Source: Limnohabitans planktonicus II-D5
Lineage (GTDB): Bacteria; Pseudomonadota; Gammaproteobacteria; Burkholderiales; Burkholderiaceae_C
NCBI RefSeq assembly: GCF_001270065.2
Contig: NZ_LFYT02000016.1
Coordinates: 1-64,000, forward strand
Direction: 5' to 3'
Length of the DNA: 64,000 bases
The position numbers and the translations under genes were made by a program. This document shows, one piece after another, positions 19,045 to 62,629 of this stretch. The notes beneath the pieces are model-generated. The model was given only the letters and a program-made list of their open reading frames with translations, made no database searches and was not told the DNA's origin. Within the stretch, counting starts at the first letter, position 1, and each line of letters starts with the position of its first letter.

Positions 19045-20131
19045 GTAGGTCGGCGGTCGAAGACCCCGACAGGGGCCTGTGCCTAAACTAAAAACGTCGG
19101 ACTCTGAGAGTGCCGACCTACGGGATGGCATCACTCAAAGTTGTTGTAGGTCGGCGGTCGAAGACCCCGACTGGGGCCTGTGCCGAAACCAAAAATGTCG
19201 GACTCTGCGAGTGCCGACCTACGGGATGACAGGTCTCAAAGTTGTTGTAAGTCGACGGTCGAAGACCCCGACAGGGGCCTGTGCCAAAACCAACAATGTC
19301 GGACTCTGCGAGTGCCGACCTACGGGATTGCATCACTCAAAGTTGTCGTAGGTCGGCGGTCGAAGACCCCGACAGGGGCCTGTGCCGAAACCAAAAATGT
19401 CGGACTCTGCGAGTGCCGACCTACGGGATGACAGGTCTCAAAGTTGTTGTAAGTCGACGGTCGAAGACCCCGACAGGGGCCTGTGCCAAAACCAACAATG
19501 TCGGACTCTGCGAGTGGCGACCTACGGGATTGCATCACTCAAAGTTGTCCTAGGTCGGCGGTCGAAGAACCCGACAGGGGCCTGTGCTTAAACTAAAAAC
19601 GTCGGACTCTGCGAGTACCGACCTACGAGATGACAGGTCTCAAAGTTTTTGTAGGTCGGCGGTCACAGACCACGACAGGAGCCTGTGCCAAAACCAAAAT
19701 CGTCGGACTCTGCGAGTGCCGACCTACGAGATGACAGGTCTCAAAGTTGTTGTAGGTCGGCGGTCGAAGACCCCGACAGGGGCCTGTGCCAAAACCAACA
19801 ATGTCGGACTCTGCGAGTACCGACCTACGAGGTGACAGGTCTCAAAGTTGTTGTAGGTCGGCGGTCGAAGACCCCGACAGGGGCCTGTGCCAAAACCAAA
19901 ATCGTCGGACTCTGCGAGTGCCGACCTACGAGATGACAGGTCTCAAAGTTGTCGTAGGTCGGCGGTCGAAGACCCCGACATGGGCCTATGCCAAAACCAA
20001 AAACGTCGCACTCTGCGAGTACCGACCAACGGGATGGCATCACTCAAAGTTGTTGTAGGTCGGCGGTCGAAGACCCCGACAGGGGCCTGTGTCGAAACCA
20101 AAAACGTCGGACTCTGCGAGTGCCGACCTGC
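19045..20131. repeat. Tandem BIME array, 11 units of 101 bp
   Basis: REP starts fall at 19045 and then exactly every 101 bp (19146, 19247, 19348 and so on to 20055). Each unit is a forward REP (GGTC/GACC stem), the linker AGGGGCCTGTGCC-AAAACCAAAA, an inverted REP (ACTC/GAGT stem), and one of two spacers: GGCATCACTCAAAGTT or GACAGGTCTCAAAGTT. Units 2-3 and 4-5 are almost identical 202-bp blocks sharing GTAAGTCGACGG, so expansion went partly by doubles. No gene lies here; short open frames in every phase are a by-product of the repeat. Confidence 0.95.
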
Positions 20132-52860: not shown

Positions 52861-54213
52861 ATGCCGCACACCTGCCCTGACCACACCCCTGACGATGCCC
52901 CTGTTGCCCCTGGGCTGCACGATGAACGGCTGAACGACCACATCTGGACGCAACAAGGCCAGGTCTTCTTATCCGGCACACAGGCCTTGGTGCGCTTGAT
53001 GCTGACCCAGCGTCAGCACGACGAGCGCCGGCACTTGAACACCCGGGGCTTGATCAGCGGCTACCGCGGCTCGCCACTGGGCATGCTGGAGCAAGTCATT
53101 TGGCAGCAAGGCGTGCAATTCAAAAACGCGGGCATCGAATTTGTGCCCGCCATCAATGAATCCTTGGGGGCCACGCAATTGATGGACACGCAGCGGTCGG
53201 CGCCCAACACCACGCGCACGGTTGATGGCGTGTTTGCCCTGTGGTGCGGCAAGGGGCCTGGGGACGAACGGGCCAGCGAAGCGCTCAAACACGGCAACGC
53301 CTTCGGCGTCTCCCCCCACGGCGGCGTGTTGGTGGTGGCGGGCGAAAAGCGCGCCAGCGAGTCATCCGCCAAACCCGCGCACAGCGACCAGGTGTTCCAG
53401 TCCTCGCACATGCCTGTGCTCTCGCCCGCCGATGTGTCGGAGCTGATGAGTTTTGGCCTGTATGGTTTTGCGCTGTCGCGTTACACCGGTGCCTGGGTGG
53501 GCATGACGACCTTGTCGGAAGTGGTGGACAGCAGCGCCACGGTAGATCTGGCCGCGATCCACATCCAAGTGAACGCTTGGAAAAGCCCGCCAGTCGTACA
53601 GACCCAGACCGGGCATGTCGCCCCTGAGCAGCACAAGCGCTGGCCCGATCTGCCTGCACTGCGCAGCGCACCGCGTCAGCAAGACAAACTGGCTGCCGTG
53701 GCCGCGTTTGCAAAGGTCAACAGCATTGACTGCAGGGTGATCGACAGCCCGATGGCCCACATCGGCATCGTCACGGCAGGCAAGGCGCACCACGACCTGA
53801 TGGGGGTGTTTCGCCGCCTGGGCCTGAGCGAAGAGGCGCTCTCGGCAGCGGGCGTGCGCGTGCTCAAACTGGGCCTGACCTACCCCATCGACAGCCCACG
53901 CATGCACGCCTTTGCACAAGATTTGCGCGAGGTCTTGGTGATTGAAGAAAACGCCCCCATCGTGGCGCAGCAAATGCGCGAGCTGTTCAAGGACGAAACT
54001 GCACGGCCCAACATCGTTGGCCAACACGACGCCCTGCCCCAACTGTCCACGCGGGGTGACATGCAGCCATCTGCGCTGATCGTGCAAGTGGCGCAGTGGC
54101 TGCAGCAACACACAGGCAGCGCATTGGGCATCCCACACCTCCCATATGAAGGGCTTCGGCGTGGGCAACTGTCGGGGCTGAAGCCACCGACCTACGCATA
54201 CCTGCCTTCGTAG
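52861..54213 (+). pseudogene. Indolepyruvate ferredoxin oxidoreductase, 3' truncated by REP insertion
   Basis: The frame encodes 450 residues, of which about the first 425 match the N-terminal part of the large fused IorA/IorB protein of betaproteobacteria (usually about 1150 residues): LNTRGLISGYRGSPLGMLEQ, VPAINESLGATQLMDTQ, KGPGDERASEALKHGN, AHSDQVFQSSHMPVLSPADV. The thiamine-binding pyrophosphate and gamma domains are missing. The last residues are read from REP sequence ([15 protein letters not shown]). The fragment cannot carry out the 2-oxoacid oxidation of the full enzyme. An alternative is that it is still translated as a partial protein. Confidence 0.75.
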
Positions 54214-56585: not shown

Positions 56586-56645
56586 TTTTGGGCGGGCGTT
56601 GAATGCAGGGGCTGCTGTGGACGTCGTCTCATGCGGATGGCCCCT

Positions 56646-57012
56646 GTAGGTCGGCGGTCGAAGACCCCGACGTTTGGCTGATGGAACCCCTTCGCTTGCT
56701 GCCAGCGCTTTCTGTAATGCGGGCAACGTCGGACTCTTCGAGTACCGACCTACGGGGACAGGCATTTGTTATGGCGGGCATTGACCGTTTCGGACCTACA
56801 GGGGCCACGGTACTCGTAGGTCGGTGGTCGAAGACCCCGACGATTCGCTTGATGGGCCTCATTCGCCTGCTGCCAGCGCTTGGTGCCAAACGGGCAGCGT
56901 CGGACTCTTCGAGTGCCGACCTACGGGGACAGGCATTTGTTATGGCGGGCATTGACCATTTCGGACCGACAGGGGCCACGGTATTCGTAGGTCGGCGGTC
57001 GAAGACCCCGAC
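56646..57012. repeat. REP cluster with about 170-bp repeat units
   Basis: Forward REPs start at 56646, 56816 and 56987. The two full units are each followed by an inverted REP and the duplicated linker GACAGGCATTTGTTATGGCG. Units share the long CCAGCGCTTT spacer seen at 1051. No gene in 56586-57047. Confidence 0.9.
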
Positions 57013-57047
57013 GTTTTGGCTGATGGACCCCCTTCGCCTGAAGCTCG

Positions 57048-57910: not shown

Positions 57911-58369
57911 ATGAAACTGAACGTCAACGGCAAATCCCACGCGCTGGATGTCGAACCCGAAATGCCCTTGTTGTGGGCTTTGCGCGACGAGCTCGACATC
58001 AAAGGGCCTAAATTTGGCTGTGGCGTGGCCCAGTGCGGATCGTGCACGGTGCTGCTCAATGGCGAGCCGGTGCGCTCTTGTGTTTACCCGGTTTCGGGCG
58101 CTGCGGGGCAAAAGGTCATCACCATCGAAGGCTTGGCCGACAAGGGCCGCTTGCACGCGATTCAGCAAGCCTGGATTGACCACCAAGTGCCGCAGTGCGG
58201 TTACTGTCAGGGCGGGCAGATGCTCGCGGCCGTGGCCTTGCTCAAGAAAAAGCCCAAACCCACCGATGAAGACATCGATGCGGCCATGACCAACATTTGC
58301 CGTTGTGGCACCTATGCCCGCATCCGCACCGCCATCCACGCCGCTGCCAAGAAAGGGACCCGCGCATGA
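57911..58369 (+). CDS. [2Fe-2S] small subunit of Mo-hydroxylase (isoquinoline oxidoreductase alpha-like)
   Basis: The 152-residue protein has the plant-type [2Fe-2S] site ([20 protein letters not shown]) and the second cluster site ([10 protein letters not shown] and [15 protein letters not shown]). It carries electrons from the molybdenum subunit. It overlaps the large subunit gene by ATGA and opens the operon that continues into soxXYZA. Confidence 0.93.
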
Positions 58370-60534
58370 GCACCCCAGACCTGACCTCCGGCATGGACCG
58401 TCGCCACTTCTTGAAGATTTCCAGCACCGCCGCCGCAGGCTTGTCGGTGGGGTTCTTTGTGCCGCAAAGCGCGCAGGCTGCCAACACGCCCCAACTGAAT
58501 GTGTGGGTCGAAATCGAGCCCAACGACACCATTGTCATCCGCTACGCCCGCGCTGAAATGGGCCAAGGCAGCATGACTTCTGCGCCCATGATGATCGCCG
58601 AGGAGTTGGAGGCCGATTGGAAAAAAGTGCGCGTCGAGTACGCCACAGCGCATGAAAACCTGCGCACCAAACGTGCCTATGGCGACATGGCTTCGGTGGG
58701 CAGCCGCACCATCCGCAATTCACAGGAATACCTGCGCAAAGCCGGTGCCACCGGTCGCGAGATGCTGATTGCCGCTGCCGCTCAGCAGTGGGGCGTGCCA
58801 GCCAGCGAGTGCAAGGCAGCGCTGAGCAAAGTCACCCATGTGCCCAGCAAGCGAACACTCAGCTACGGCAAACTGGCCGCAGCGGCTGCCAAGCTGGAAG
58901 CCCCCAAAGACGTCAAGCTCAAAGACCCCAAAGACTGGACATTGATCGGCAAGTCCATCCCCCGTGTGGACATTCCCGACATCGTGACCGGTCGCGTGAA
59001 GTACGGCATCGACGCGCAAGTGCCTGGCATGCTGCACGCGGCCATTGCCGCTTGCCCGGTGTTCAACGGCACCGTCAAAAGCATGGACGCCTCCAAGGTG
59101 GAAAATCGCAGGGGCATCGTCAAGGTGTTGAATTTGGGCACCTTTGTGGCCGTGGTAGCCGACAACTGGTGGCGCGCCAAAGAAGCGCTGCGCGATGTGG
59201 CGGTGGACTGGGATGTGGGCGAGCACGGCACCTTGAGCAGCGCCGCGATCATGGCCCACTTCAAAGCCGGTATGGATCAGCCAGAACTGGCGGTGGCACG
59301 CAACGATGGCAACACGGCTGATGCGCTGAGCAAGTCTGCCAAGGTCATTGAGGCTGAATACTTCACGCCCTATTTGGCGCACGCCACCATGGAGCCCATG
59401 GTGTGCACCGCTTGGCTGCAGGGTGACCAACTCGATGTGTGGTGCTCAACGCAAAACCCGGAATCCACCTTGGCCGTGGCGGCGGCGACTGCGGGCGTGC
59501 CTCAGGCCAATGTGAAAGTGCACCCCATGCAATTGGGTGGAGGTCTCGGGCGCAAAAGCCCGCAAGATTTCACGCGCCAAGCCGTCACGATTGCCAAGGC
59601 CATGCCCGGCAAGCCCATCAAAATGCTGTGGTCTCGTGAAGAGGAAATCCAGCACGGCTTGTACCGCCCAGCCAGCCTGATGCGTTTCAAGGCGGGCTTG
59701 AGTGCCACGGGCAAAGCCGAGGCACTGCACATCCGCGTCAGTGCCCCATCCATCTTGGCCACCTTGCTGAAGCTGCCCTTGCCCAAAGGGGTGGACGGTC
59801 AGGCGGTGGCTTGTTTCAACGACCACCCCTACGACATCCCGAACACCTTGGTGGACTATGCCCAGCGCAACACCAATGTGCCCGTGGGTTTTTGGCGCAC
59901 TGTGGGGCATTCGCAAAACCCGTTTGGGCGTGAGTGCTTCATCGACGAGATGGCCCAGGCTGCAGCGCAAGACCCGGTGGCGTACCGCTTGGCCATGCTG
60001 CCCAACAATGAAAAAGCCAACCGCGACCGTGCGATCTTGCTGGCCGTGACCAAAGCGGCCGGGTGGGACAAAAAACCTGCGCCGGGTGTGTTCCGGGGCG
60101 TGGCCGCCACCGACGGTTATGGCAGCTGGACGGCGTGCGTGTGCGATGTCTCCATCAACGCCAAAAACGAGGTCAAGATCCACCGCATCGTGATCGGCAT
60201 TGACCCCGGTTATGCCGTCAACCCCGACAACATCGTGGCCCAGTTCCAGGGCAGCGTGGTGCACGGTTTGACCGCCATTTTCTGGGGTGAAAACACCATC
60301 AAGGATGGGCGTGTGGAGCAATCCAACTTCCACGATTACCGCATGATGCGTTTGAACGAAATGCCCAAGGTGGACGTGGTGATTGCGCCCACGGGCGGCT
60401 TCTGGGGCGGGGTGGGCGAGCCCGCTCAGGCGCCTTTGGCACCGGCGGTGGCCAACGCCATTTCGGCCGCTTTGGGCAAACGCATCCGCAGCTTGCCCTT
60501 GAAGAACCATGGTTTGACTTTGGCACGCGCATGA
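58366..60534 (+). CDS. Molybdopterin-binding large subunit of Mo-hydroxylase (isoquinoline oxidoreductase beta-like)
   Basis: The 722-residue protein has a twin-arginine signal ([20 protein letters not shown]), so the enzyme is exported folded to the periplasm. It has the xanthine-oxidase-family Mo-binding segments, for example [20 protein letters not shown] and [20 protein letters not shown] (read with the preceding His), and the catalytic Glu in [20 protein letters not shown]. Substrate is unknown; relatives act on aldehydes and N-heterocycles. Periplasmic location, the downstream SoxX-type cytochrome as possible electron acceptor, and ATGA overlaps on both sides suggest a joint system with Sox proteins. 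Confidence 0.92.
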
Positions 60535-60947
60535 CGGTGCTGGGCTTGGCGCGGGTGTGGGCCTTGGTGTTCAGCGCTGGCTGGGGCTGGGCCGCTGCGC
60601 AAACGCCTGATGTCCTTCAATCTGGCTCGCCGGAGCGGGGCAAAGCCTTGCTTTTGCAAAGACAAGACAGCGGCTGTGTGCTGTGCCACCAAGTGCAGGG
60701 TTTGCCTGCGGGTGGCGCACTCGGCCCGTCTTTGGTCGGTTTGCCCGAGCGCAGCACCAAAGATCAAGCCCGCGAGCGCATCGCCGATGCCCGGCGCTTC
60801 AACCCGCAAACCATCATGCCCGCCTATTTCAGTACCGAGGGTTTGTACAAAGTGGCGACCCCCTACAAGGGGCAAACCATTTTGACGGCGCAGGGACTTG
60901 AAGACATCTTGAGTTACTTGTTCTTGCCCAGCAAGGCCACGCCATGA
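60531..60947 (+). CDS. soxX: SoxX, monoheme c-type cytochrome of thiosulfate oxidation
   Basis: The 138-residue periplasmic protein has a signal peptide (VWALVFSAGWGWAAA) and one heme site (CVLCHQ, residues 49-54). A likely axial Met lies in NPQTIMPAYF (about residue 96), and YKGQTILTAQGLEDILSYLF resembles the SoxX C-terminus. SoxX pairs with SoxA to attach thiosulfate to the SoxY cysteine. The ATG overlaps the stop of the Mo-subunit gene. Confidence 0.88.
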   Translation: MTVLGLARVWALVFSAGWGWAAAQTPDVLQSGSPERGKALLLQRQDSGCVLCHQVQGLPAGGALGPSLVGLPERSTKDQARERIADARRFNPQTIMPAYFSTEGLYKVATPYKGQTILTAQGLEDILSYLFLPSKATP

Positions 60948-61429
60948 AGTGGCCCACATTGACCCGTCGTGAAGGCTTGCGGCAAGCGCTGCGGGCCGGA
61001 CTTTATGGGGCTGCTGTTCAGCTGTGGCCCAGCCAAGCCCAAGACATGGCATCGGGCCAGTTGTTGAGTGTGGCGAAAATGATCGAGCCCCTGACCCAAG
61101 GCGCTCGTGTGTTGGAGCAAGACGTGAAATGGGTGGCCCCCGTGTTGGCCGACAACGGCACTTTGGTGCCTGTCACGGTGCAAGTGCAAAGCCCCATGAC
61201 GCCCCAAGACCATGTGACGCATGTGTACCTGTTGTCTCAGCGCAATCCGGTGACGCGCATGGCGGTTTTCCATTTGGGCCCTTGGAACGGACGTGCCGAA
61301 GTCAGCACGCGCCTGCGCTTGGCGGGCACCCAGCAAGTGGTCGCGTTGGCACGCTTGTCCAATGGTGAGTTTCGTTATGGTCAGATGGAAATCATCGTCA
61401 CCGAGTCGGCTTGCGTCGACGCTTCATGA
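60944..61429 (+). CDS. soxY: SoxY-type sulfur carrier, variant C-terminus
   Basis: The 161-residue protein has a Tat-like signal (TLTRREGLRQALRAGLYGAA) and the SoxY core (VTHVYLLSQRNPVTRMAVFH; AGTQQVVALARLSNGEFRYG). Known SoxY proteins end in a GGCGG-type motif whose Cys carries the sulfur substrate. Here the end reads VTESACVDAS: the Cys is kept (residue 157 of 161) but the flanking glycines are lost. The protein may hold substrate in a less flexible arm, or carry something else. It overlaps soxX and soxZ by ATGA. Confidence 0.82.
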   Translation: MKWPTLTRREGLRQALRAGLYGAAVQLWPSQAQDMASGQLLSVAKMIEPLTQGARVLEQDVKWVAPVLADNGTLVPVTVQVQSPMTPQDHVTHVYLLSQRNPVTRMAVFHLGPWNGRAEVSTRLRLAGTQQVVALARLSNGEFRYGQMEIIVTESACVDAS

Positions 61430-61767
61430 ACATGGCATTTACACGCATCCAATGGCCTGAACGCGTCTTGGCGGGGGATGTGGTCAAAGTTCGTCTGCTG
61501 GTGCAACACCCCATGGACACGGGTTATCTGCAAGACCTGTTGGGCAAGTTGGTGCCGCGCAACGTGATCCAGTCACTGACTTGCACTTGGGGCCAGCAAG
61601 TGGTGTTTCGCGTGGAGCCTTCTTCGGGTATTTCGGCCAATCCTTTATTCGAATTTTTTGTGCGAGCAGAACAAACGGCCGAAATGCATGTGGAGTGGAC
61701 CGATGACCGGGGTGTCAAAGGCAGCTTGCGGCAAATTCTGCCGGTCTTGCCCAAAAGCAGCCCCTGA
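61426..61767 (+). CDS. soxZ: SoxZ, sulfur carrier partner
   Basis: The 113-residue Ig-like protein matches SoxZ: WPERVLAGDVVKVRLLVQHP, MDTGYLQDLLGKLVPRNVIQ, SSGISANPLFEFFVRAEQTA and VEWTDDRGVKGSLRQILPV. SoxZ forms a heterodimer with SoxY. It has no signal peptide, as expected for co-export with the Tat-signalled SoxY. ATG 61426 overlaps the soxY stop. Confidence 0.9.
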   Translation: MNMAFTRIQWPERVLAGDVVKVRLLVQHPMDTGYLQDLLGKLVPRNVIQSLTCTWGQQVVFRVEPSSGISANPLFEFFVRAEQTAEMHVEWTDDRGVKGSLRQILPVLPKSSP

Positions 61768-61771
61768 GCGC

Positions 61772-62629
61772 ATGCGCATTCGAGCGTTCGCGTCGATGTT
61801 AGCAGCAGGGTGTGAGCGCACCGTGATCAAGGTGTGCTTGTTGGTCCTTATGTTCCTTGCGTTGTGGGGGGGCAGTGGGTACGCCGTTGCGCAGACGCCA
61901 GAGCCACCCGCGCGCAGCTTGCCTTTGTCGCAGATCAAATCGGGCCTGCATTATTCGGGCAAGGATGTGCAAGCCTTGCAAGCCGATGAGTTTGCCAACC
62001 CCGCCCAACTCTGGCTGAGCCAAGGGGCGCAGGCTTGGGCCCAGCCCAGTGCCGCCAATGGCAAATCGTGCGTGAGTTGTCACGGCGCAGTGGCCACCAG
62101 CATGAAAGGCGTCGCCACGCGTTATCCCGCCATCGACGCTGCCAGTGGGCGACTGTTCAACCTCGAAGACCGCATCAACCAATGCACCACGCGCCACCAG
62201 CAAGCGGCGGCCATGCCCCCTGAATCAGATGCCCTGCTAGGCTTGAGTTTGCTGGTGACGCAGGCCTCCAAAGGCATGCCTTTGAGTGTAGACATTGGCG
62301 GTGCGGCGCGCGGCCACTGGCAAGCCGGGGCGACCCTGTTTTCACAACGTCAAGGCCAAATGAATTTGTCATGCGCCCAATGTCATGACCAAAATTTTGG
62401 GCAACGCCTGTACACCGACCTGCTGAGTCAAGGGCAGCCCAATGGCTACCCGGTGTACCGTCTGGAATGGCAAAAGCCAGGATCGCTGGAGCGGCGCTTG
62501 CGCAGTTGTTATGCCGGTATTCGCGCCGAAGTTCCGCCTTGGGGTGCTTTGGAGATGCGGCAATTGGCGCTGTACCTGATGTGGCGCGGCGAGGGCTTGC
62601 CCATCGAGGTGCCGGCTGTGCGCAAGTGA
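61772..62629 (+). CDS. soxA: SoxA, diheme c-type cytochrome
   Basis: The 285-residue protein (from ATG 61772; ATG 61796 possible) has a hydrophobic signal (VCLLVLMFLALWGGSGYAVA) and two heme sites, CVSCHG (about 100-105) and CAQCHD (about 201-206). The SoxA cysteine near RRLRSCYAGIRAEVPPWG (about residue 246) acts as active-site heme ligand, and the end reads ALYLMWRGEGLPIEVPAVRK. This is the diheme class. SoxXA forms the disulfide bond between thiosulfate and SoxY. It starts 5 bp after soxZ and is the last gene of the operon; soxB, soxC and soxD are absent. Confidence 0.92.
   Translation: MRIRAFASMLAAGCERTVIKVCLLVLMFLALWGGSGYAVAQTPEPPARSLPLSQIKSGLHYSGKDVQALQADEFANPAQLWLSQGAQAWAQPSAANGKSCVSCHGAVATSMKGVATRYPAIDAASGRLFNLEDRINQCTTRHQQAAAMPPESDALLGLSLLVTQASKGMPLSVDIGGAARGHWQAGATLFSQRQGQMNLSCAQCHDQNFGQRLYTDLLSQGQPNGYPVYRLEWQKPGSLERRLRSCYAGIRAEVPPWGALEMRQLALYLMWRGEGLPIEVPAVRK

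What the first reader, a model, noticed from the sequence alone, without database searches (positions are those of the whole stretch)
57911..62629. Molybdenum hydroxylase fused by operon to SoxXYZA
Six genes overlap or nearly touch (ATGA at four junctions): [2Fe-2S] subunit, Tat-exported Mo subunit, SoxX, SoxY, SoxZ, SoxA. Canonical sox operons need SoxB and often SoxCD (also a molybdenum enzyme, but of the sulfite-oxidase family). Here a xanthine-oxidase-type enzyme takes that position. The Sox carrier may shuttle a substrate to the Mo-hydroxylase, or the SoxXA cytochromes may accept its electrons. I know of no described system of this form.
Basis: partly seen in the sequence, partly recalled or inferred. 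Interest (0 to 1): 0.75.

Follow-up and report, generated by a model that had tools for sequence, protein, structure and literature searches.

The report
Molybdenum enzyme paired with Sox carrier
A freshwater bacterium carries, besides its ordinary sulfur-oxidation genes, a second set in which the sulfur-carrier proteins are teamed with a molybdenum enzyme of a kind that usually oxidises carbon compounds; many related bacteria keep the same team, but what it feeds on is not known.

Summary
The six-gene operon is real: [2Fe-2S] subunit, Tat-type molybdenum subunit, SoxX, SoxY, SoxZ, SoxA, with four ATGA overlaps. The host is Limnohabitans or a very near relative. It has a canonical sox operon elsewhere, but the window genes are no decayed copy: dN/dS is 0.02-0.38 in 37 computed comparisons. 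The unit recurs widely (Methylobacterium, Neorhizobium, Roseomonas and others; 22 of 397 sampled genomes of the phylum, a lower bound), often with a sulfide-dehydrogenase flavoprotein gene. In unrooted quick trees its molybdenum subunit, SoxY and SoxA each fall on one side of a well-supported branch. Its SoxY has another swinging arm (T-x-x-A-C-[LVT]-[DE]; 0 of 43 have GGCGG, against 27 of 27 SoxB-linked SoxY). SoxB is absent from 10 of 46 genomes with this SoxY; in 9 of those 10 the only SoxA is of the molybdenum-linked type. Best reading: a SoxB-independent periplasmic pathway in which SoxXA loads a sulfur compound, probably an organic thiol, onto the modified carrier and the molybdenum hydroxylase oxidises it there. 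The substrate is unproven. Prior art: a 2013 Starkeya novella paper mentions such a cluster and doubts its function; NCBI has a family for this SoxY. I found no functional assignment in the papers seen.

The parts
57911..58369 (+). [2Fe-2S] subunit (MoS) of a xanthine-oxidase-family enzyme, 152 aa
   Evidence: PF01799 8e-29, PF00111 1e-6; cysteine motifs read from the sequence printed
58366..60534 (+). Molybdenum subunit (MoL), 722 aa, twin-arginine signal (DRRHFLK, read by eye), catalytic-Glu motif GVGEP
   Evidence: MoCoBD_1 3e-36 and MoCoBD_2; GxGE motif in 37 of 37 SoxY-linked rows; ATGA overlap
60531..60947 (+). SoxX, c-type cytochrome, 138 aa, CVLCH haem motif
   Evidence: TIGR04485 62.2 bits over cut-off 61
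60944..61429 (+). SoxY paralogue, 161 aa, Tat-like signal (read by eye), arm TESACVDAS instead of GGCGG
   Evidence: PF13501 1e-26; TIGR04487 123.9 bits, under its cut-off; arm statistics
61426..61767 (+). SoxZ, 113 aa from ATG 61426
   Evidence: TIGR04490 83.6 bits over cut-off 76; ATGA overlap
61772..62629 (+). SoxA, dihaem cytochrome, 285 aa, CVSCH and CAQCH, cysteine haem-ligand motif RLRSCY
   Evidence: TIGR04484 204 bits; PDB 1h31 4e-47 with an aligned cysteine

Best explanation
The operon encodes one periplasmic unit that does not need SoxB. The SoxXA cytochromes oxidatively attach a sulfur substrate to the cysteine at the end of a specialised SoxY arm. The carrier presents the bound substrate to the molybdenum hydroxylase, which oxidises it, most likely at a carbon next to the sulfur (hydroxylation with water, then release of an aldehyde or acid, leaving sulfane on the carrier or a free thiol). 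Electrons pass through the [2Fe-2S] subunit to c-type cytochromes. The likely substrate class is a small organic thiol or related C-S compound. Shown: gene content, conserved linkage, shared lineage of the parts, the altered arm, intact catalytic residues, purifying selection, presence in SoxB-less genomes. Inferred: periplasmic assembly (from signal peptides), loading by SoxXA (from homology), action of the molybdenum enzyme on the carrier-bound substrate, and the nature of the substrate.
For: Linkage: in the stretches read, no SoxY beside the molybdenum genes has soxB, C or D within 9 kb. In the non-redundant set of 90 SoxY, 43 are molybdenum-linked; 0 of 43 have GGCGG, against 27 of 27 SoxB/SoxC-linked (1 of 15 fcc-linked). 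42 of 43 have Ala before the Cys and 40 of 43 Asp/Glu at +2. Trees (quick, unrooted): all 37 SoxY-linked molybdenum subunits lie in one group of 42 (SH-aLRT 98). With the arm left out, the other 46 SoxY are parted from the molybdenum-type ones by a 98 branch; 37 molybdenum-linked SoxA plus 5 unlinked (4 orphan, 1 contig edge) form one 100 group. The link survives rearrangement: divergent in L034, convergent in L133, L134, L142, L143, L146. SoxB is missing in 10 of 46 genomes, 8 of the 10 at least 96% complete; SoxA of any kind is in 46 of 46, and in 9 of the 10 SoxB-less genomes the single SoxA is in such a cluster or its tree group. Active residues: SoxY Cys 43 of 43; two SoxA haem motifs and a ligand-region Cys 37 of 37; MoL GxGE 37 of 37. 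dN/dS 0.02-0.38. The flavoprotein of the Methylobacterium cluster matches flavocytochrome c sulfide dehydrogenase at 8e-129, pointing to sulfur. Thiosulfate is unlikely: the S. novella Sox proteins of this cluster were undetected and transcripts very low on it (PMC3797975).
Against: No neighbour gene names a substrate. SoxXA is absent from the cluster in some Limnohabitans loci (L035, L036, L041, L057-L061). Three of those genomes (G001, G030, G035) keep a SoxA of the same tree group elsewhere, but G051 (no SoxXA in its cluster) and G058 (cluster cut by a contig end) have only a SoxA of another lineage. Five members of the molybdenum-subunit group lack SoxY nearby, one of them with SoxXA, so the enzyme can exist without the carrier gene beside it. 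The organic-thiol guess has weak and mixed support: an SBP56-family gene lies 5.6-9.9 kb away in 3 related genomes but scores far under the methanethiol-oxidase cut-off, and there is no genus-level enrichment (1 of 8 against 28 of 223). The haem-cysteine mechanism of SoxAX is itself disputed in the paper used. In S. novella one flavocytochrome subunit of the cluster was seen at low level except on glucose. I found no data showing activity.
Confidence: 0.45

Rival explanations
1. Aldehyde-oxidation unit: the molybdenum enzyme oxidises a small aldehyde captured as a thiohemiacetal on the SoxY thiol, or the Sox parts only protect or repair it. SoxYZ is a thiol cofactor, not a sulfur carrier.
For: Closest solved structure of MoL is an aldehyde dehydrogenase large subunit (8gy3, 1.5e-64). 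A fused SoxYZ-like carrier is associated with PQQ alcohol dehydrogenases in Pseudomonas putida (PMC12997753 passages). One orphan SoxXA pair (L130) sits by genes that look like aromatic-acid degradation (read by eye).
Against: The 8gy3 match does not discriminate: the two unlinked relatives tested match it better (3e-89 and 5e-92). It does not explain the retained SoxA cysteine or the linked sulfide-dehydrogenase-type flavoprotein.
Confidence: 0.2
2. The molybdenum enzyme is an alternative sulfane dehydrogenase replacing SoxCD: it oxidises inorganic sulfur bound to SoxY.
For: Same partners (SoxXA, SoxYZ), sulfide-dehydrogenase-type flavoprotein in many clusters, no SoxCD nearby.
Against: SoxB, needed to release sulfate in the known pathway, is absent from the cluster and from 10 of 46 genomes. 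Known enzymes of this family act mostly on carbon (recalled). S. novella did not express the Sox proteins of the cluster on thiosulfate.
Confidence: 0.15
3. SoxXA merely accepts electrons from the molybdenum enzyme, and SoxYZ is carried along without a catalytic role.
For: Relatives of this family use c-type cytochrome partners (recalled); SoxXA without SoxYZ beside the molybdenum genes was found in L147.
Against: Among the loci read, SoxYZ without SoxXA beside the molybdenum genes is commoner (10 loci, several near-copies, one cut by a contig end) than the reverse (1 locus); the SoxY cysteine is kept in 43 of 43.
Confidence: 0.1
4. Redundant duplicate of sox genes with no function, as suggested for Starkeya novella.
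For: Undetected Sox proteins and very low transcripts of the cluster in S. novella (PMC3797975); a canonical sox operon is present in the window's genome.
Against: dN/dS 0.02-0.38, separate lineage, presence in genomes that lack SoxB.
Confidence: 0.05

Closest known systems
Second sox cluster of Starkeya novella (soxX2Y2Z2A2F2 with XO-family enzyme Snov_1975/1976; PMC3797975, passages and section 16 seen)
   Same: Same gene content: SoxXYZA, flavocytochrome c and an XO-family molybdenum enzyme; no SoxB or SoxCD
   Different: The Limnohabitans operon lacks flavocytochrome genes; orthology was not tested at sequence level here. In what I read the paper proposes no function and suggests no functional significance, other conditions allowed
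NCBIfam TIGR04487, SoxY-related AACIE arm protein
   Same: Best NCBIfam model for the window SoxY (123.9 bits); 15 of 397 sampled genomes have a match over its cut-off, all 15 places molybdenum-linked
   Different: The window protein is below the cut-off of 172; its arm is SACVDAS. The model names a protein, not the system
Canonical Sox thiosulfate pathway (SoxXA, SoxYZ, SoxB, SoxCD)
   Same: Homologous SoxXA and SoxYZ, reactive cysteines kept
   Different: No SoxB or SoxCD, other arm, other molybdenum-enzyme family
Tat-exported IorB/AldH-type molybdenum hydroxylases (structure 8gy3; type names recalled)
   Same: Tat signal, separate [2Fe-2S] subunit, GxGE motif, full-length match to 8gy3
   Different: Linked to SoxYZ and SoxXA; forms its own group in the tree
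Quinoprotein-dehydrogenase-associated SoxYZ-like carrier (TIGR04557; ped cluster, PMC12997753 passages)
   Same: A SoxYZ-type carrier associated with a dehydrogenase of carbon compounds
   Different: Fused YZ, PQQ enzyme, SoxH-like hydrolase; no SoxXA or molybdenum enzyme named in the passages seen

Membership tests
Canonical Sox thiosulfate-oxidising system | SoxB present with the carrier | tested here: not met
   Not within 9 kb of any molybdenum-linked SoxY in the stretches read; absent from 10 of 46 genomes; present elsewhere in the window's genome
Canonical Sox thiosulfate-oxidising system | SoxY with GGCGG swinging arm | tested here: not met
   0 of 43 against 27 of 27 SoxB/SoxC-linked
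Canonical Sox thiosulfate-oxidising system | SoxA with haem motifs and the ligand cysteine | tested here: met
   Cys in the ligand region and two CxxCH in 37 of 37; window SoxA aligned with 1h31
Canonical Sox thiosulfate-oxidising system | Thiosulfate oxidation activity | not testable with these tools
   Indirect: S. novella Sox proteins of its cluster not detected on thiosulfate
TIGR04487 SoxY-related AACIE arm protein | Score over curated cut-off (172 bits) | tested here: not met
   123.9 bits; other members of the same lineage pass
Xanthine-oxidase family, Tat-exported IorB/AldH-type | MoCoBD domains, [2Fe-2S] partner, Tat signal, GxGE motif | tested here: met
   (Tat signal by eye)
Mo-hydroxylase/SoxXYZA cluster as in S. 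novella | XO-family enzyme with soxXYZA, without soxB and soxCD | tested here: met
   Gene content compared with the text of PMC3797975; sequences not compared

The most novel reading that the evidence does not exclude
A carrier-tethered organosulfur pathway: in evolution the Sox swinging arm has been remodelled to hold an organic thiol, and a molybdenum hydroxylase oxidises the bound carbon, making Sox a general covalent-carrier chemistry and not only a thiosulfate pathway.
Probability: 0.33. Interest if true: 0.78.

Novelty: new variant of a known kind. Interest (0 to 1): 0.58.

Why it matters
Genomes with these genes are easily counted as thiosulfate oxidisers because annotation names them soxX, soxZ and soxA. 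The evidence says they are a distinct system that occurs without SoxB, in soil and freshwater bacteria. If the molybdenum enzyme works on carrier-bound substrate, it would be a new use of the Sox carrier and perhaps an unknown route for organic sulfur turnover. The arm motif gives a simple marker to tell the two systems apart.

Tried and rejected
Degenerate duplicate: rejected by dN/dS, trees and presence in SoxB-less genomes. Aldehyde dehydrogenase by structure match: not discriminating, since the two unlinked relatives tested match 8gy3 better. Methanethiol oxidase partner: SBP56 is in 0 of 36 genomes of the genus, and in 3 of 6 cluster-bearing against 0 of 18 other genomes of the order (Fisher 0.0099); in the phylum sample 6 of 22 against 36 of 375, all six in one genus, so 1 of 8 against 28 of 223 genera. 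Over the MtoX cut-off are only G051 and G057 among the 60 relatives and 0 of 21 cluster-bearing phylum genomes; the two over it in that call, G260 and G223, have molybdenum relatives without SoxY nearby. Kept only as a weak lead. Neighbour genes: 144 of 275 flanking ORFs were scanned; no further family reached more than 8 of 144 (aldo-keto reductases 8, XdhC-type maturation genes 2); which loci these came from was not resolved. Structure prediction was not used: a single-chain model would not show carrier docking.

Papers: searches for 'AACIE arm' and 'SoxY-related' gave 0; soxYZ with xanthine dehydrogenase gave 1, judged irrelevant from its title; the S. novella paper came up in the listing for 'soxY-like' and was then opened. 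A SoxY-expansion paper (PMC11237559) held none of six terms on this topic. Masuda 2010 was not held, so whether soxY2 of Bradyrhizobium diazoefficiens, said not to be essential for thiosulfate oxidation (PMC5748708 passage), is this type stays open. The molybdoproteome paper by Kappler and Nouwens was not seen.
Full report
OBSERVATION. The window's genome has 4.87 Mb in 152 contigs. The same SoxY at 98-100% identity is found in Limnohabitans, Comamonadaceae and Burkholderiales records, and contig lengths identify two genomes of the window's own genus as Limnohabitans sp. 2KL-51 and Rim11 (159,288 and 924,826 bases). Six genes run on the + strand from 57911 to 62629: MoS, MoL, SoxX, SoxY, SoxZ, SoxA. 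Four junctions are ATGA; SoxA starts in the fifth base after the SoxZ stop. HMM identities are in the observation check. MoL carries a twin-arginine signal, SoxY a twin-arginine-like one, and SoxX and SoxA have hydrophobic leaders (read by eye), so the products are expected in the periplasm.

THE REST OF THE GENOME. A second, canonical operon lies on contig C11 (L023): SoxC (589 bits), SoxY with GGCGG (163.8), SoxZ (135.5), SoxA (232.7), SoxX (85.8), SoxB (854) and a SoxH-like hydrolase under its cut-offs. SoxD was assigned by position and sequence; NCBIfam gave it no match. Of the 42 possible, four lacked a partner gene (SoxX and SoxA in L059 and L057) and one had saturated dS.

CONSERVATION. 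Among 36 genomes of the genus sample (own included), 19 have a SoxY of this type at 109 bits or more. For 15 of these its neighbourhood was read; 14 show the molybdenum gene beside it and one (L032) ends at a contig edge. In an even draw of 397 genomes of the phylum, TIGR04487 at E<=1e-20 rang at 84 places in 75 genomes. I read 61 of the 84 places (60 fetched plus the window). 22 genomes have a molybdenum-linked SoxY, all among the 38 best-scoring places; the 23 unread places score 99.0 bits or less. Since the divergent second type below scores lower still, 22 of 397 is a lower bound. Two loci (L075, L091) first seemed to lack SoxY because of ORF overlap; on inspection L075 is molybdenum-linked and L091 SoxB-linked. 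Named carriers: Methylobacterium, Neorhizobium and Roseomonas plasmids and Elioraea, Paucibacter, Beijerinckiaceae, Rhodospirillales and Betaproteobacteria GR16-43 records.

REVERSE TEST. Of 17 weaker matches whose surroundings I read, none has SoxY nearby.

ARCHITECTURE. Of 17 molybdenum-linked clusters from other classes in the phylum sample, 15 add a flavoprotein gene, often with a small cytochrome c; the Methylobacterium one is FccB-like (5n1t, 8e-129). None of the loci of the window's order showed it. One Limnohabitans relative has SoxX and SoxA fused (L030). Some Limnohabitans clusters are only MoS-MoL-SoxY-SoxZ; three of those genomes (G001, G030, G035) have a SoxXA pair elsewhere whose SoxA belongs to the cluster group, as has G031, whose cluster I did not read (L130, L131, L137, L136). 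A second, divergent type in Limnohabitans has arms STACLDD or STACLDG and, where fully seen, a convergent layout (L132-L135, L142, L143, L146). Linkage kept through rearrangement speaks for joint function.

LINEAGES. Of 96 MoL sequences, 58 remained after removing those at 90% identity or more: 37 SoxY-linked, 1 linked to SoxXA only, 20 unlinked. All 37 and the one fall in a group of 42 (98) with 4 unlinked rows, three of them on fairly long branches. Of 123 SoxY, 90 remained at 85%; with the arm left out, the 43 molybdenum-linked rows and one contig-edge row are parted from the other 46 by a 98 branch, though 116 columns resolve little else and the root is unknown. Of 96 SoxA, 67 remained; 37 molybdenum-linked and 5 unlinked (4 orphan, 1 contig edge) form one group (100) without any of the 22 SoxB-linked. 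These are quick trees with SH-aLRT only.

THE ARM. SoxB/SoxC-linked SoxY: T-[ILA]-G-G-C-G-G in 27 of 27. Molybdenum-linked: Thr in 40 of 43 at -4, Ala in 42 of 43 at -1, Leu/Val/Thr in 39 of 43 at +1, Asp/Glu in 40 of 43 at +2. The reactive cysteine is kept in all 43, but the glycines next to it in the canonical arm are mostly gone. A different arm is what one expects if the partner enzyme that must receive it is different (inference).

INDEPENDENCE FROM SoxB. Of 46 genomes with this SoxY (linkage to the molybdenum genes read in 45, not in G031), SoxB is missing in 10; 8 of the 10 are at least 96% complete. Some SoxA is found in all 46. Each of the 10 SoxB-less genomes has a single SoxA, and in 9 it is in such a cluster or its tree group. 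In the tenth, G051, it is of another lineage beside a fused SoxYZ; G058, whose cluster runs to a contig end, also has only a SoxA of that other lineage. So one lineage may run the molybdenum-SoxYZ pair without its own SoxXA.

MECHANISM. SoxA-family enzymes are thought to form a disulfide between a sulfur substrate and a thiol through a haem-ligand cysteine; this is supported for TsdA and inferred for SoxAX, where the paper also reports a conflicting claim that the cysteine is dispensable (PMC4423706, abstract and passages). The cysteine region and both haem motifs are kept in 37 of 37, and the GxGE motif of the molybdenum subunit in 37 of 37. The parts thus look catalytically competent. The FccB-like gene points to sulfur. 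A usually carbon-hydroxylating enzyme (recalled) plus a sulfur-loading cytochrome and a thiol carrier is best explained by a substrate holding both sulfur and carbon: an organic thiol. This last step is inference and no substrate is shown.

WHAT IS IN PRINT. The S. novella paper (PMC3797975; passages and section 16 seen) describes a second sox cluster soxX2Y2Z2A2F2 with an XO-family molybdenum enzyme and no SoxB or SoxCD. Its SoxAX and SoxYZ were undetected, one flavocytochrome subunit was seen at low level except on glucose, and transcripts were very low on glucose, methanol and thiosulfate; the authors suggest no functional significance but allow other conditions. The Polynucleobacter paper (PMC3308952; passages and section 12) notes SOX genes closer to Bradyrhizobium than to Cupriavidus. 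The Bradyrhizobium paper (PMC5748708; passages) says two soxY exist and only soxY1 is essential for thiosulfate oxidation. The ped-cluster paper (PMC12997753; passages) gives a precedent for SoxYZ-like carriers beside carbon-oxidising dehydrogenases. In ten searches of the held open-access library I saw no functional assignment, but of most hits I saw only the listing, and subscription papers are mostly not held.

VERDICT. A real, widespread, selected variant of Sox chemistry, already glimpsed in print. New here, as far as these searches show: its breadth, the arm signature, the shared lineage of its parts and its presence without SoxB.

Noticed in passing
window, 24 places, e.g. 1052-1513, 19046-20081 and 56642-57020: A 26-base element (up to 3 mismatches) occurs 24 times in the window and 1186 times in the 4.87-Mb genome (602 forward, 584 reverse; reversed control 0), with arrays at regular spacing and inverted partner arms.
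   Followed up: partly
L132-L135, L142, L143, L146: A second, divergent molybdenum-SoxXYZA cluster in Limnohabitans with convergent layout and arms STACLDD or STACLDG.
   Followed up: partly
L130, L131, L136, L137: Orphan SoxX-SoxA pairs; in L130 beside genes that look like aromatic-acid ring-cleavage genes (read by eye).
   Followed up: no
L115, L118, L119, L121, L125, L127-L129: Flavocytochrome-SoxYZ clusters with GGC[AVS]G arms and no SoxB nearby, another Sox variant.
   Followed up: no
G242:C1:5275233-5276609, G231:C99:31885-33261, G288:C1:2133659-2135035: SBP56-family gene 5.6-9.9 kb from the SoxY of the molybdenum-Sox cluster in three related genomes; below the methanethiol-oxidase cut-off.
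   Followed up: partly
window 52861-54213: 450-aa ORF without a Pfam match that resembles part of an indolepyruvate ferredoxin oxidoreductase (recalled); may be a fragment.
   Followed up: no
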